Assembly (NCBI GenBank): GCA_903915155.1
Contig: CAIWRU010000070.1
Location: 1-42,606, forward strand
Direction: 5' to 3'
Length of the DNA stretch: 42,606 bases
Source of the DNA: an uncultured Mucilaginibacter sp.
GTDB lineage: Bacteria; Bacteroidota; Bacteroidia; Sphingobacteriales; Sphingobacteriaceae
A program made the translations under genes and the position numbers. Numbering within the stretch: position 1 is the first letter of the stretch; each line of letters begins with the position of its first letter. Positions 3,771-41,388 of the stretch are shown one piece after another. The notes under the pieces are model-generated. The model saw only the letters and a list, made by a program, of their open reading frames with translations. It made no database searches and was not told the origin of the DNA.

Positions 3771-4226
3771 ATGAACCCTGCAATTGACAGACTTAGACAA
3801 CCCCGTACCTACCTGCTGAATCTTATAAGCGAATTAACCACCGAGCAATTGAACAAAGTACCCGAAGGCTACAATAATAACATTATATGGAACCTTGGCC
3901 ATATGGTTGCCGCGCAGCAGGGTATTTGCTACAAGCGCGCGGGTGTGGATATGATTATTGAAGAGGATTTTTTTGAAACTTACAAACCCGGTTCCAAGCC
4001 TGTAAAGTTTGTTGATGACGATGAAATTGCCATTATTAAAGAAAGGTTTATCACATCGCTCGATAGATTTGAGGCCGATATTGAAAAAGGCATTTTTGTT
4101 AATTACACACCGGTTATGACCCGCTACGGTGTTGAACTTACCAATATAGATAGCGCTGTGGCTTTTCTGCCCTTTCATGATGGTTTTCATATGGGCTATG
4201 TGCTGGCGCTGAAAAGGGCGGTGTGA
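3771..4226 (+). CDS. DinB-like four-helix protein
   Basis: This 151-residue protein fits the DinB/YfiT superfamily of small four-helix-bundle proteins with a metal site. The expected histidines are visible: IIWNLGHMVAAQQG around residue 45 and HDGFHMGYVLAL near the C-terminus, the HxxxH-type pair that with the first histidine would bind a divalent metal. Members include thiol-dependent transferases (bacillithiol or mycothiol S-transferases) and DNA-damage-induced proteins; the exact reaction cannot be told. The start at 3771 is the first ATG and gives the usual family length. It stands alone, with the AT-rich island beginning directly behind it. Confidence 0.85.
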   Translation: MNPAIDRLRQPRTYLLNLISELTTEQLNKVPEGYNNNIIWNLGHMVAAQQGICYKRAGVDMIIEEDFFETYKPGSKPVKFVDDDEIAIIKERFITSLDRFEADIEKGIFVNYTPVMTRYGVELTNIDSAVAFLPFHDGFHMGYVLALKRAV

Positions 4227-4236
4227 TGTTGGTTGC

Positions 4237-4571
4237 CTGTGGGAACACAATAGGTGTTCGGAAGATCAAAAAAGTGGCGAAATTGTGCGATTCCTTTTTT
4301 AAGTAGGATAATAGCTAATAAAACGACGTTTATAGTGTATTAACGCTAATTATATGGTTAACATAACTTAACACAATTTCGACCTATTTATCAATTAATA
4401 TATTGTATATCAATGGTTTAACAAATAAAAAGGGTTGATTGTGTTAACCATGTAGTTACGCTTTATTGGATTATTTCCAACGTTTTTTTATTCCTTCCGG
4501 GGGAATGGCCTCAAGAGGGGGGACTGTTATCATCAAAATAAATCTTCCGAACACCTATGATGGGGACACAG
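4237..4571. repeat. Inverted-repeat-bounded AT-rich segment, candidate MITE
   Basis: A 17-bp sequence, ATAGGTGTTCGGAAGAT, at 4250-4266 recurs as an exact reverse complement at 4542-4558. The match extends imperfectly outward to CTGTG at 4237 and CACAG at 4571, giving 30-nt ends with 24 matching positions. Inside lies a second inverted repeat: ATGGTTAACA (4354-4363) with TGTTAACCAT (4442-4451), and TTAACACAAT (4368-4377) with ATTGTGTTAA (4438-4447). No gene is visible in it. GGGAACACA (4241-4249) and GGGGACACA (4562-4570) lie just outside the 17-bp ends as near-direct repeats. The structure suits a non-autonomous mobile element; no transposase or clean target duplication is seen. This covers the gene-free stretch 4227-4601. 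Confidence 0.55.
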
Positions 4572-4601
4572 ACAATGTGGGAAAATCAATAACTTAGCAA
4601 A

Positions 4602-4802
4602 ATGACAGACGAATTTAACAAGGAAATAGCAGCGATAGGGGAAAAGAACGCGGTTGAAATAAACGGTGATCTGAAGGATTACTTCTCTATAATCCAAAGG
4701 CCAAATGATTCCTACAAAATAATATGGAGTAAAAAAGCATCAACCCATATTAAGCACAAGGTTACGGCCGTGGTAAAAAAATATTATATACCGACTTTTT
4801 AA
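4602..4802 (+). CDS. Small hypothetical protein (66 aa)
   Basis: The ORF encodes 66 residues, starting MTDEFNKEIAAIGEKNAVEI and ending in lysine-rich sequence and YYIPTF. I recognise no domain; it is soluble, without a signal peptide or membrane segment. TAACTTAG at about 4591-4598 is one mismatch from the TAnnTTTG -7 box and sits 3 bp before the ATG, which would make the message nearly leaderless. It lies in an AT-rich island between the inverted-repeat element and the broken TIR gene, so it may be a cargo gene or a remnant of a longer one. Reality of the gene is uncertain. Confidence 0.45.
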   Translation: MTDEFNKEIAAIGEKNAVEINGDLKDYFSIIQRPNDSYKIIWSKKASTHIKHKVTAVVKKYYIPTF

Positions 4803-4861
4803 TCAAGTTGAGTTTTGTGATTGTTTTGTTGATATATATATTATTAGACATAATTATTACA

Positions 4862-5647
4862 TTATTCTTTCTTTCCGTTTATTAAAGGTAAAGGTTTCCA
4901 CAAATCTCTTTTTTCTTCGTGCATTACTTGAATAATATCGATTTTGCTTTCTCCTATCGGAGATGCTTCCATAGTAAATGGAAAGCCCGGCACAGTTCCT
5001 CTGGAAATTCCCAAAAACAGTGCATTGTAATTTATAAGCCCTTTATTAGCCACATTAATAAGAAAATTACTATTAAAGCTATTCTCACTGGTACAACTAA
5101 AGTCTATTTCGCTTTATAAGTTTGTTGTTAAAAACAAATAATTTGATACTGGTTCTAAATAGTGTTCGGCATGACATTCAATAATGATTTTTTGATCAAC
5201 GATGGTTTTATATGCTCTTAGATTTGAAAAGGCTTGAGGACCCGGTTGAAATGTATTTTTTCCCGAAGTAATATCAAATATTTGTCTCAAAGCGACTTCA
5301 AGTCCCTGTCCAAATAAATCTATGTAAAGAGATTGTAACAGAATGGCGGGCATAAAGCAATCATCCAATTTAATTGGGATTAATTTTGTTTTGCCTTGGG
5401 TTGCTTTAATGACAGCATTCTGCCATTCTAACTCGACCATTTTGCTTTGAAGGCTATTCTTGGAAACACAAAACAAGAATAACTCACAATTCTCAATGCC
5501 CTTATTCATTTTATCAACTATTCCATCACCCGGTTGAATAGACCATGAATCATAGAAAACTTGATCTTGTCCAAAAATATCTCTTAAACGCAAAGCTATT
5601 TGTTCAACGATGGGTTTGTCTTTATAATTATGCGAAATGAATATCAT
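4862..5647 (-). pseudogene. TIR-domain protein interrupted by an in-frame TAA
   Basis: From the ATG at 5647 the frame encodes 177 residues and stops at TAA 5116-5114. The same frame then stays open for 83 more codons to 4862. The N-terminal 130 residues form a TIR domain: MIFISHNYKDK as first strand, YDSWSIQPGDGI as BB loop, LFLFCVSKNS, and SKMVELEW, in which E74 matches the catalytic glutamate of NAD-cleaving TIRs. The part before the stop (IIECHAEHYLEP, YLFLTTNL) runs naturally into the part after it (SEIDFSCTSENS, GTVPGFPFTMEASPIGE), so I read one ancestral protein of about 261 residues. TIR proteins of this kind often act in anti-phage defence or signalling; here function is inferred and the gene may be dead. 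The stop could be a real nonsense mutation or a base error. Confidence 0.72.
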
Positions 5648-5666
5648 GATATTGTTAGGTTTAAAT

Positions 5667-5674
5667 CAAATATA
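5667..5674 (-). promoter_or_regulatory. -7 box of the TIR gene
   Basis: The minus strand reads TATATTTG, a full match to TAnnTTTG, 19 bp upstream of the TIR ATG at 5647. A -33 TTTG is not evident. Confidence 0.45.
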
Positions 5675-5698
5675 TTAATTATTTGGAACTTGAATACA

Positions 5699-5722
5699 CA
5701 AAAAAGCCCGGCAACCCGGGCT
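5699..5722 (-). terminator. Rho-independent terminator of sucA-sucB
   Basis: On the minus strand AGCCCGG, a short loop and CCGGGCT are followed by a run of six T. It begins 50 bp past the sucB stop, as expected for the end of the operon, and separates it from the TIR gene. Confidence 0.85.
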
Positions 5723-5771: not shown

Positions 5772-7034
5772 CTAAACGCCCAACAATAATCTTGTAGGAT
5801 CTTCCAATAACTGTTTCACTCTTACTAAAAAGCTAACTGATTCGCGGCCATCAATGATGCGGTGATCGTATGATAGGGCTACGTACATCATCGGCCTGAT
5901 AACGACCTGGCCATTTACAGCAACCGGGCGCTCGATGATATTGTGCATGCCCAATATGGCCGACTGCGGTGAGTTGATGATAGGTGTAGATAACATAGAA
6001 CCGAACACACCGCCATTGGTAATAGTGAATGTACCGCCGGTCATTTCTTCCAGGCTCAATTTGTTATCACGGGCTTTGGCGGCAAGTGCTGCAACAGCTT
6101 TTTCGATCCCGGCAAGGCTAAGGCTTTCCGCGTTGCGGATAACCGGTACTACCAGGCCTTTAGGGGCTGATACGGCTATAGAAATATCAGCAAAATTGCT
6201 GTAAACTACTTCTTCGCCGTCGATACGTGCGCCAACTGCGGGCCATTCTTTCAATGCCTCGGTCACCGCTTTGGTGAAGAACGACATAAAGCCTAAGCCA
6301 ACGCCGTGTTTCTCTTTAAATTTCTCTTTGTATTTGGCACGAAGCTCCATTATTGGCTGCATATCCACTTCGTTAAACGTTGTAAGCATGGCGGTTTCGT
6401 TTTTAACGGTAACCAAACGCTTGGCAACAGTCTTGCGTAACGACGACATTTTTTCGCGTTTCTCGGTGCGATCGCCGGGGTTTATTGGTGCCGGAGCTGG
6501 CGCAGCCGCAGGGGCTGAAGCAGCCGGTTTTGGTGCCGGGGTAGCAGCGGGAGCTTGAGCATTCAACGCATCTCCCTTGGTTATCCTTCCGTCAACCCCA
6601 TTACCACTTACACTGGCAGGGTCAACGCCTTTTTCGGCTAATATTTTTGCAGCAGCAGGCGATGGTGTGCCCGATGCGTAAGTGCTTTGTTTCGAGGTTT
6701 CTTTTTCCGTAGTTACAGCTAATTTTTCTTCCTCCTGCGCTTCTTCTTTGGTAGGTGCAGCAGTTTTAGCGTCGGCTACAGGTGCAGCAGCTGGAGCCGC
6801 GCCCGCTTCAATGGTGCAAACTACTGCGCCAATAGGCAATACATCGCCTTCTTTGGCTACGGTTTTTAAAGTTCCGGCTTCGGTTGCAGTAAGCTCAAAT
6901 GTGGCTTTGTCTGATTCTAATTCGGCAATCACTTCGTCCATTTGTACTGCATCGCCGTCTTTTTTTATCCACGATGCCAGGGTTACTTCGGTAATTGATT
7001 CGCCAACCGGCGGAACTTTGATCTCTAAACTCAT
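5772..7034 (-). CDS. sucB: 2-oxoglutarate dehydrogenase E2, dihydrolipoyl succinyltransferase
   Basis: This 420-residue protein is the E2 core of the 2-oxoglutarate dehydrogenase complex, passing the succinyl group from lipoamide to CoA in the TCA cycle. Domains in order: lipoyl domain (residues 1-77) with the lipoylated lysine K43 in ESDKATFE; an Ala/Pro linker; a peripheral-subunit-binding domain (about 116-155, [20 protein letters not shown]); another Ala/Pro linker; and the acyltransferase domain from about residue 195, with catalytic SYDHRIIDG (H391, D395). The length is normal for a one-lipoyl E2. It lies 93 bp downstream of sucA in the same direction, shares the sucA promoter in all likelihood, and is followed by a terminator. 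Confidence 0.96.
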
Positions 7035-27703: not shown

Positions 27704-28085
27704 AAGCCTGGGGTTGACGAACTAATATTATAATAACAAGTTTCTGTAAATTAAACCGTAAAATGAAATATTTTGCCTGTAAAGAGAAATAACAATAAAA
27801 ATCAGCGCTGATAGAACGATAAAAAGAGAATTTATTGTATTGAATTATTGATAAGGCAAGGTTTGGTTTTGAGACAGTAAGTTATAAAAAAACGCGCAAA
27901 AGCAGGGCTTTTTGCGCGTTTTTTGACCCGTTTTTTATGTTTTTTACACGTTTTTAAGGGCAAATAGCCTGAAATAATGCCTGTTTAAGCGTGTTTTTGG
28001 ATGAAAACAAGGATAAAAAGGGCGATTTTGGGGCGTTTTTACGATGTTTTAAACCATGGTGAGACGCGAGTGGTTGGTCTTCCAG
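27704..28085. other. 382-bp gap with a hairpin and A/T-rich sequence
   Basis: Apart from the hairpin at 27887-27924, the stretch contains runs of T and words such as GTTTTTT and ACACGTTTTTAAG but no convincing gene. It holds the presumed promoter of the protease gene, for which no good TAnnTTTG box was seen. Confidence 0.5.
27887..27924. terminator. Strong bidirectional hairpin terminator
   Basis: AAAAAACGCGCAAAA (27887-27901) and TTTTGCGCGTTTTTT (27910-27924) are a perfect 15-bp inverted repeat with an 8-base loop. The A/T flanks give a T-run on either strand. It is 160 bp past the stop of the minus-strand HAD gene and would end that transcript. Confidence 0.8.
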
Positions 28086-40220: not shown

Positions 40221-41388
40221 TTAAGTAGTCACATTCTCCATCACCAAAATAGCGGCGCCAACCAGTTCGGCATCAAAACCAAGTTCCGATATTAAAAGTT
40301 CAGTGCTGGCCGCCAGGCGGGGGATGCAATATTTATGTAATGCCTGTTGTATAGGCGCAAGTAAAATTTTACCTACTATCGCCCCGCGACCGCTCAATAC
40401 AATGCTTGCCGGGTTCATAATATGCATCAGTATAGCCAGTGCTTTACCAATCTTATAGCCCGCGTCTGATAGTAACTCAATGGCAAACTGGTCGCCGTTA
40501 TTGGCGGCTTCCATTAGGGCGTCGCCCACTAGTTTAGGATGGTCCTCCTCAATATATTTTAATATCGATATTCGCCCATCCTTTATACCTTCAATAGCCT
40601 TTTTCACCACTACCAGCATCGATGCTTCAGCTTCCAGGCATCCTCTTTTCCCGCAGGCGCACATGTTGTTGCTATCCGTTATAGGGGATATGGCTAAGCT
40701 CACCGGCAAAACCATTATGCCCGCGATAAATATCGTCGTTTATTATCATCCCCAAACCAATGCCCCAGCCCAGGTTTATAACCATAACATCTTTTCGGCT
40801 TTTGGCTATCCCAAATTTCTGTTCGGCCAGCGCTATAAGGCTCGAATCATTGTCAATATAAGTAGGTATGCCGGTTTCAGTGGTTAGCAACTGCGTAAGG
40901 CTTTGGCCATCAGTAGTCAGGTGGGTATAGTTAATACCCTCATTTACATTAATAAATCCCGGCATGCCAATGCCTATGCCCGCAAACCTGTCGCGTGGTA
41001 CGCCCGTATTATCAATGTAATCGTTTAGCTGTATAATCAATTCGGCCAATGCACCGGGGTTATCCCATAGCGGCAGCTCAAATATCAGCATGTCGCCTAT
41101 TGGGTTGTTTAGCAGGTCAATCAGTTGTATCCGGGTCGAAAACTGGTCCATTGCCACTGTAAGCATATACAATGCATCGGCTTTTATCGAGTAAATCAGC
41201 GGCCTGCGCCCACCGCTTGATCGGGCGTAACCGTCCTCTATCACCAAACCATCCTCTATCAGTTCGTTTATTGCTTTTGATATAGAAGGTAAGCTTTTAT
41301 CCAAAATCTCACTCAATTCAGCGCATGATAAACCCTTATCAAAATAAAGATTTTTAATGATCAGGCTTTTTAAAGGAGTGTTTTTCAC
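40221..41388 (-). pseudogene. ROK-family regulator split by a +1 frameshift
   Basis: The N-terminal frame starts with a GTG at 41388 (MKNTPLKSLIIKNLYFDKGLS) and has a winged helix (ELSEILDKSLPSISKAINELIEDGLVIEDG), then the ROK sugar-binding domain (IGIGMPGFINVNEG, VMVINLGWGIGLGMIINDD, GHNGFAGELSHIP). It then stops at a TAG at about 40672. The rest of the protein lies in another frame, 40221-40715: ITDSNNMCACGKRGCLEAEAS with the ROK zinc motif, then a normal C-terminus. Removing one G from the four-base run at 40684-40687 restores GELSHIPITDSNNMCACG without a gap. The intact product, about 388 residues, would be a NagC/Mlc-like repressor responding to a sugar. It could be a pseudogene or carry a sequence error. 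Confidence 0.8.

What the first reader, a model, noticed from the sequence alone, without database searches (positions are those of the whole stretch)
4862..5647. TIR-domain gene split by a single in-frame TAA
The two ORFs lie in the same frame, separated only by one stop at 5116-5114, and the protein text runs smoothly across it. The TIR domain keeps its catalytic glutamate (E74). Either the cell has silenced a costly defence gene, or the truncated 177-residue TIR is a working short form, or the base is wrong.
Basis: partly seen in the sequence, partly recalled or inferred. Interest (0 to 1): 0.55.

Follow-up and report, generated by a model that had tools for sequence, protein, structure and literature searches.

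The report
Stop-broken copy of mobile TIR gene
A bacterium carries an acquired immune-type gene cut short by one stop codon; full-length relatives of about 260 residues sit in integrons, prophages and chromosomes of unrelated bacteria, so this copy is most likely a disabled defence gene.

Summary
On the minus strand a 177-codon TIR ORF (5647-5114) ends at TAA 5116-5114; 83 open codons follow in frame. They are one gene: of 28 distinct family copies gathered here, the other 27 all carry a residue at the stop column, and the 25 without an internal stop are 256-277 residues long. Models of an 86%-identical relative show a TIR domain (1-127) and a confident beta-sandwich (from 143); the stop removes 7 of its 10 strands. 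The gene is an AT-rich lone insertion of about 890 bp between sucB and a small ORF, absent from the relative with the most similar full-length sucB. Close kin lie before attC-type hairpins (Bacteroidales, Marinobacter, Pseudomonadales) or beside a restriction-like gene (Spirochaetales); distant kin lie in viral contigs. The window copy has no such hairpin. Two other of the 28 copies are also stopped. Best reading: a loss-of-function allele of a mobile, apparently single-gene TIR plus beta-sandwich protein, probably antiphage by NAD+ depletion (inferred, untested). A working short form or a wrong base is not excluded; another gene on this contig is frameshifted.

The parts
5114..5647 (-). TIR-domain ORF, 177 codons plus TAA at 5116-5114
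   Evidence: Pfam TIR_2 1.9e-25; E74 aligned to the Glu of solved TIR domains
4862..5113 (-). 83 in-frame codons after the stop plus terminal TAA: remainder of the beta-sandwich domain
   Evidence: aligned to intact relatives; C-terminal profile A4 matches 4874-5239 across the stop, E 2.6e-34
5114..5116 (-). the in-frame TAA, codon 178, falling between strands 3 and 4 of the C-terminal domain of the modelled relative
4803..5693 (.). approximate extent of the inserted single-gene block (about 890 bp), absent from L104; right edge uncertain by some tens of bases; inverted 7-mers TCAAGTT 4803-4809 and AACTTGA 5687-5693 at its ends may be chance
   Evidence: comparison with L104; end letters printed; GC 33% for the gene against 43% for the window
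5705..5722 (-). terminator-like hairpin after sucB, just outside the insertion
   Evidence: 3 terminator-like sites found in the stretch, 1.2 expected from shuffles
5772..7034 (-). sucB-like gene (name by recall), flank of the insertion, core gene
   Evidence: matched in 40 of 41 genomes of the genus
4602..4802 (+). conserved 66-codon ORF, other flank of the insertion
   Evidence: 80% DNA identity to L104 7405-7599; differences by codon position 6, 5, 28

Best explanation
The window holds a nonsense-truncated copy of a ~260-residue, apparently single-gene TIR protein. Shown: the family is one continuous protein with an N-terminal TIR domain and a C-terminal part modelled as a beta-sandwich; this copy is a lone-gene insertion after sucB; the stop removes 7 of the 10 strands of the sandwich. 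Inferred: in the intact protein the sandwich is the sensor or assembly-control part and the TIR the NAD+-consuming effector, so that a phage signal makes TIR domains assemble and starve the cell of NAD+; losing the sandwich gives a protein that cannot be triggered or folds badly, i.e. a loss of defence. Inferred: such losses recur because the gene is costly or useless between phage attacks.
For: 27 of 27 other copies carry a residue at the stop column; 25 of 28 copies have no internal stop and are 256-277 residues long. C-terminal profile matches the window across the stop at 2.6e-34; its matches are all in known TIR copies: 4 of 298 relatives, 2 of 296 genomes of a phylum sample. C-terminal model pLDDT 93.1, pTM 0.86; stop between strands 169-174 and 181-185. 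Empty site in L104; GC 33% against 49% in sucB. Among 761 neighbour ORFs (all frames, 27 of the 28 copies; L066 not included) nothing recurs except phage genes shared among prophage loci, a same-genus pair, and a DnaB helicase in three loci. Two other copies are stopped: L004 at 35, L010 at 101. After the stop 2 of 7 conserved positions are changed in the window, 0 of 6 in L002.
Against: The TIR part shows no decay: 2 of 59 conserved positions changed, as in the intact sister, and branch lengths before the stop are equal (0.093 and 0.092, six-taxon tree). The faster change after the stop is not significant, and the L003 branch there is longer still (1.00 against 0.79). No activity of a family member was found in the papers looked at. 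No reads were available to confirm the base.
Confidence: 0.7

Rival explanations
1. The stop is a sequencing or assembly error and the living cell has an intact 260-residue gene.
For: The source is a 222-contig draft. A second gene on the same contig, a ROK-like ORF pair at 40221-41388 (name by recall), is split by a one-base frame difference at a run of four C, so disrupted ORFs occur here. The frame after the stop stays open with no second lesion.
Against: The lesion is an in-frame stop, not a homopolymer indel; the codon before it also departs from the sister. The part after the stop changed more than in the intact sister (14 against 6), which an intact gene would not need, though this is not significant.
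Confidence: 0.15
2. The 177-residue product is a working short form: a bare TIR domain, constitutively active, dominant-negative or partner-dependent.
For: The TIR part is fully conserved; short open frames of 137-193 codons with TIR matches exist in the same genus at other loci (not examined further).
Against: 0 of 25 copies without an internal stop are short. The product would carry only strands 1-3 of the sandwich, which should not fold. An unleashed NADase would be expected to be toxic (inference).
Confidence: 0.13
3. The two ORFs are unrelated neighbours in the same frame.
For: None found.
Against: Alignment across the stop in the relatives.
Confidence: 0.01
4. The TAA is read through or recoded, or the second part is restarted, so that both parts are made.
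For: The frame stays open after the stop; a GTG in frame at 5053 could start a 63-residue piece.
Against: No other copy has a stop at this column (27 of 27 carry a residue); the 63-residue piece would lack the first strands.
Confidence: 0.01

Closest known systems
TIR_2 domain NADases (Pfam PF13676; AbTir, TcpB, PdTIR)
   Same: TIR fold over residues 1-132 of the modelled relative (VIA-align Z 11-12 for these, rmsd about 3), conserved Glu at the WxxxE position
   Different: C-terminal sandwich has no match over a curated cut-off: window piece none at E 1 in Pfam, PADLOC, NCBIfam; five full-length relatives only sub-threshold Pfam matches there (best 0.049). PADLOC matches of relatives are to the TIR part, one reaching residue 154. 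NCBIfam was tried on the window pieces only. Trp of WxxxE absent
Cat1 (CARF-TIR, type III CRISPR)
   Same: single polypeptide of 263 residues with TIR fused to a second domain whose ligand maintains the filaments that form the active sites (abstract of PMC12162218); profile match E 4.4e-9 over the TIR part
   Different: second domain here is a beta-sandwich; no recurring CRISPR or other partner among neighbours
TIR-NLR single-gene system of P4-like satellites
   Same: single-gene TIR defence on mobile DNA (passages of PMC9122126); PADLOC TIR-NLR model matches the TIR part
   Different: no STAND NTPase or TPR; about 260 residues against a model of 824
SPARTA (TIR-APAZ with short pAgo) and Thoeris ThsB
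   Same: TIR fold; SPARTA chains head the structural matches for the TIR part (Z up to 13.1)
   Different: no recurring partner gene; C-terminal domain resembles CBM2 or cohesin sandwiches, Z 9.0, rmsd 2.6 over 95 residues to 3ndy_E
Integron gene cassettes
   Same: nearest relatives L002, L004, L005 are followed by hairpins of attC type, DNA fold z -5.24, -2.69, -2.53; integrases over the integron cut-off in the genomes of L003, L004, L005
   Different: window copy has no such hairpin (z +1.20) and its genome no integrase over the cut-off

Membership tests
Pfam TIR_2 | score over the curated cut-off | tested here: met
   90.2 bits against 28
NADase-type TIR domains | Glu of the WxxxE stretch | tested here: met
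   E74 aligned, invariant in A2 and A3
NADase-type TIR domains | Trp of WxxxE | tested here: not met
   M70 in the window; in a table seen in PMC11374754 Trp matters in AbTir but not in TcpC (passage)
NADase-type TIR domains | NAD+ cleavage | not testable with these tools
   needs an enzyme assay
The TIR plus sandwich family described here | homology over the full length | tested here: met
The TIR plus sandwich family described here | continuous open frame of 256-277 codons | tested here: not met
   window copy is stopped at codon 178; so it is a broken copy, not a working member
Thoeris | adjacent ThsA-type partner | tested here: not met
   no recurring neighbour around 27 copies; flanks of the window insertion are a small ORF and sucB
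SPARTA | adjacent short pAgo and an APAZ domain | tested here: not met
   no recurring neighbour; C-terminal part modelled as a 125-residue beta-sandwich
TIR-NLR | STAND NTPase and TPR | tested here: not met
   protein too short; only the TIR part matches
Integron gene cassette | attC site after the gene, window copy | tested here: not met
   no hairpin in 4765-4861 (z +1.20). A loose home-made rule hit two places in the window, 4738-4834 and 28002-28052, against 1.4 in shuffles: not above chance
Integron gene cassette | attC-type hairpin after the gene, relatives L002, L004, L005 | tested here: met
   stretches were picked by eye, and the home-made rule itself found only L002
CBM2 or cohesin fold | same beta-sandwich topology | tested here: inconclusive
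   Foldseek 2vo8 E 1.9e-4, TM 0.46/0.44; VIA-align Z 9.0 to 3ndy_E; a shared fold shows no function

The most novel reading that the evidence does not exclude
The intact family is an undescribed single-gene immune receptor, a TIR effector carrying its own beta-sandwich sensor, that moves between phyla as integron cassettes, prophage cargo and lone chromosomal insertions, and is repeatedly silenced by nonsense mutations after arrival; the window is one such silenced arrival.
Probability: 0.45. Interest if true: 0.55.

Novelty: new variant of a known kind. Interest (0 to 1): 0.36.

Why it matters
If true, this links a compact TIR protein with an unassigned sandwich domain to integrons, which are now reported as antiphage libraries (passage and reference titles in PMC12444791), and shows one copy caught being switched off. 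The family is small enough (one gene, about 260 residues) to make the sensing step of a TIR immune protein directly testable. One paper files TIR proteins of plant-associated cassettes under host immune regulation (passage in PMC11089894); the presence of this family in viral contigs and in bacteria of several phyla suggests antiphage use instead (inference). Taken alone, a nonsense mutation in an acquired defence-type gene is ordinary.

Tried and rejected
Strict attC scan: nothing in any of 17 loci or the window; rule too strict, since it also missed sites seen by eye. A looser home-made rule found the site after L002 but not those after L004 and L005, and gave hits elsewhere (L006, L007, L008, L012, L067, L073, window), mostly few and unexplained; it is not relied on. 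DNA folds also gave hairpins after L006 (z -3.32) and L008 (z -2.24), whose genomes have no integrase over the cut-off; what these are is open. Integrase search: the profile rings in 16 of 16 genomes and 14 of 14 controls through related recombinases; 3 of 16 pass the cut-off (two of the 16 handles, G748 and G833, give identical rows and look like one genome; the genome of L007 was not included). The recombinase fragment before L002 (Pfam Phage_integrase 1.8e-9; 53.9 bits) is not certified as an integron integrase. The inverted 7-mers at the ends of the insertion were noticed after the fact.

Empty site: rests mainly on one relative, G071 (L104), 58% complete. G088 has a sucB 3' fragment of 96% protein identity over 180 residues but its flank does not match the small ORF, so it says nothing on the exact site; the other regions compared (L106-L110) match only parts of the flanks.

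Plasmid records: 12 matches, all to the TIR part, at most 34.9% identity, 0 of 12 covering 80% of the query. GenBank phages: no match. IMG/VR: 15 loci, 11 distinct full-length proteins used; L042, L045, L046 dropped as copies or near copies, L053 cut at a contig end. L038 is the same place as L008 and was dropped; L001, L013, L033-L035 and L037 repeat others.

L007 (Candidatus Gracilibacteria) seemed to have stops; read by table 25 (TGA as Gly) it is intact, so it is not counted as broken. L003 has no hairpin after the gene (z +0.68).

Vertical descent in the genus was considered: 25 of 149 genomes have some TIR match, 4 of 149 (the window's included) a close one (E below 1e-50), and the other three fall in another clade, so separate acquisition is preferred. 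No control rate for broken genes was measured. Paper searches for TIR with integron, beta-sandwich, prophage and related terms showed no description of this family in their listings; the library lacks most subscription papers, and a defence-prediction paper (PMC13092281, listing only) was not opened. PMC11023631 gave only a reference. A viral-contig search with the C-terminal domain alone failed.

Full report
The observation. The minus strand of the window holds an ORF from ATG 5647 to TAA 5116-5114 (177 codons), then 83 open codons in the same frame to TAA 4864-4862. The first part is a TIR domain (Pfam TIR_2 1.9e-25); the second part alone matches no Pfam, PADLOC or NCBIfam model at E up to 1.

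One gene, not two. Relatives were found in 11 contigs of species-representative genomes, in three genomes of the same genus at 45-52% identity, in one more genome of the family (5 of 400 genomes of the order, the window's and the three above included; 3 of 395 in a phylum sample), in two genomes of one other genus (2 of 166, one of them apparently the genome of L008) and in 15 IMG/VR contigs. After removing repeats, 28 distinct copies, the window's included, were aligned: 25 have no internal stop and are 256-277 residues long, and 27 of 27 others carry a residue where the window has its stop. A profile of the C-terminal part alone matches the window across the stop at E 2.6e-34.

What the whole protein looks like. 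AlphaFold2 on the Bacteroidales relative L002 (86% identical to the window over residues 1-176; alignment of 18) gives a TIR domain at 1-127 and an all-beta part from 143 (mean pLDDT 81.5, pTM 0.48, so the placing of the two domains is not reliable). The C-terminal part alone folds with pLDDT 93.1 and pTM 0.86. It resembles CBM2 and cohesin sandwiches (3ndy_E Z 9.0, rmsd 2.6 over 95 residues; Foldseek 2vo8 E 1.9e-4); this speaks of fold, not function. The TIR part matches SPARTA, PdTIR, AbTir and TcpB TIR domains (Z 11-13). E74 lines up with the Glu of the WxxxE stretch, on which NADase activity of most bacterial TIRs depends (passage in PMC11374754); the Trp is not kept. The stop falls between strands 169-174 and 181-185, so 7 of the 10 strands are lost and the product would be a TIR domain with a fragment of a sandwich.

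How it came here. The TIR gene has 33% GC against 43% for the window and 49% for sucB. In G071, the genome whose full-length sucB is most similar among the 41 searched (91%; genome 58% complete), the small ORF matching 4602-4802 and sucB lie about 100 bp apart with no TIR gene between; in the window about 970 bp separate them, of which roughly 4803-5693 is extra and holds only this gene. So it looks like a lone-gene insertion. This rests mainly on that one relative; G088, with a 96% identical sucB fragment, has a different flank. Four of 149 genomes of the genus, the window's included, hold a close match, and the other three fall in a different clade, so this copy was probably acquired on its own.

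Where its kin live. The window, L002 (Bacteroidales), L003 (Spirochaetales), L004 (Pseudomonadales) and L005 (Marinobacter) form one clade (support 98), in conflict with species relations. L002, L004 and L005 are followed by long hairpins of attC type (DNA fold z -5.24, -2.69, -2.53 against shuffles, stretches picked by eye; letters), and L005 lies in a row of genes with a further such hairpin (z -3.39). Integrases over the integron cut-off occur in the genomes of L003, L004 and L005 and in none of the other 13 of 16 handles searched; they were not shown to lie in the same array as the TIR gene, and that of L005's genome has an in-frame TGA. L003 has no hairpin (z +0.68) and lies near a type I restriction-like gene (name by recall, ORF). 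L006 and L008 also have hairpins (z -3.32, -2.24) without an integrase over the cut-off. More distant members sit in IMG/VR contigs, for example within about 2 kb of a terminase gene (L043) or a Dam methylase (L039). Among 761 neighbour ORFs (all frames, 27 of the 28 copies) nothing recurs except phage genes shared among prophage loci, a same-genus pair, and a DnaB helicase in three loci. This points to a self-sufficient single gene that travels. The window copy shows no attC (z +1.20) and its genome no integrase over the cut-off, so arrival as a cassette is a suggestion, not a result. Cassettes can enter genomes outside integrons at attG sites (passage citing this in PMC12444791).

State of the gene. 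Before the stop the window copy is as conserved as its sister L002 (2 of 59 conserved positions changed in each; branch lengths 0.093 and 0.092 on a six-taxon tree, 0.122 and 0.099 on the full one). After it the window branch is longer (0.79 against 0.18; 0.56 against 0.26 on the full tree), with 14 polarised changes against 6 and 20 not polarised; before it 8 against 10 and 7. Fisher one-sided p is 0.10. L003 is longer still after the stop, and the C-terminal part changes faster than the TIR part in 8 of the 10 pairs compared (the two exceptions are same-genus pairs), so this is only a hint of relaxed selection. Two further copies, L004 (residue 35) and L010 (residue 101), carry in-frame stops: 3 of 28 in all. 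No control rate was measured, so no excess is claimed.

Mechanism. Shown: domain layout by model, truncation point, insertion, relatives. Inferred: a TIR NADase effector under control of the sandwich; infection-triggered assembly; NAD+ depletion. Ligand-dependent assembly of a fused TIR protein is known for Cat1 (abstract, PMC12162218), and a single-gene TIR-NLR protects E. coli from phage (passages, PMC9122126). On this reading the window allele has lost triggering. A wrong base remains possible: a ROK-like gene (name by recall) at 40221-41388 on the same contig is split by one base at a run of C. A working short form remains possible because the TIR part shows no decay.

Verdict. The family behind it, a compact TIR plus beta-sandwich protein found in integron-type cassettes, viral contigs and chromosomes, is the more interesting part and was not seen described in the listings searched.

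Noticed in passing
window 4239-4584: MITE-like repeat with inverted ends (ATAGGTGTTCGGAAGAT and its complement) between the ORF 3771-4226 and the small ORF; 42 matching places in this genome, itself included, five of them at the start of a contig.
   Followed up: partly
window 40221-41388 (-): ROK-like gene (name by recall) split into ORFs of 238 and 164 codons by a one-base frame difference at a run of four C near 40688: pseudogene or assembly error.
   Followed up: partly
window 4602-4802 (+): 66-codon ORF with no family match over a cut-off, 80% DNA identity to L104 with changes mostly at third codon positions (6, 5, 28).
   Followed up: partly
window 4803-4809 and 5687-5693: Inverted 7-mers TCAAGTT/AACTTGA at the two ends of the inserted block; may be chance.
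   Followed up: no
L007 3571-4357: Family copy in a Candidatus Gracilibacteria contig has TGA where relatives have glycine or open sequence, so it seems adapted to that lineage's code.
   Followed up: partly
L005 7657-7726: Group II intron match near the end of the gene row in Marinobacter; the integrase of that genome (G831:C84) has an in-frame TGA.
   Followed up: no
L002 1-162 and 1649-2524: Tyrosine recombinase C-terminus about 260 bp before the TIR gene in a Bacteroidales contig, same direction, with two further small genes and GTTAGCA-type boxes after it.
   Followed up: partly
L070 3991-5568, L072 3443-5020: In two same-genus genomes the related intact TIR gene lies just after a DnaB helicase gene.
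   Followed up: no
L006 5796-5936 and L008 5787-5862: Hairpins after the TIR gene in two flavobacterial-type genomes (z -3.32 and -2.24) that have no integrase over the integron cut-off.
   Followed up: no
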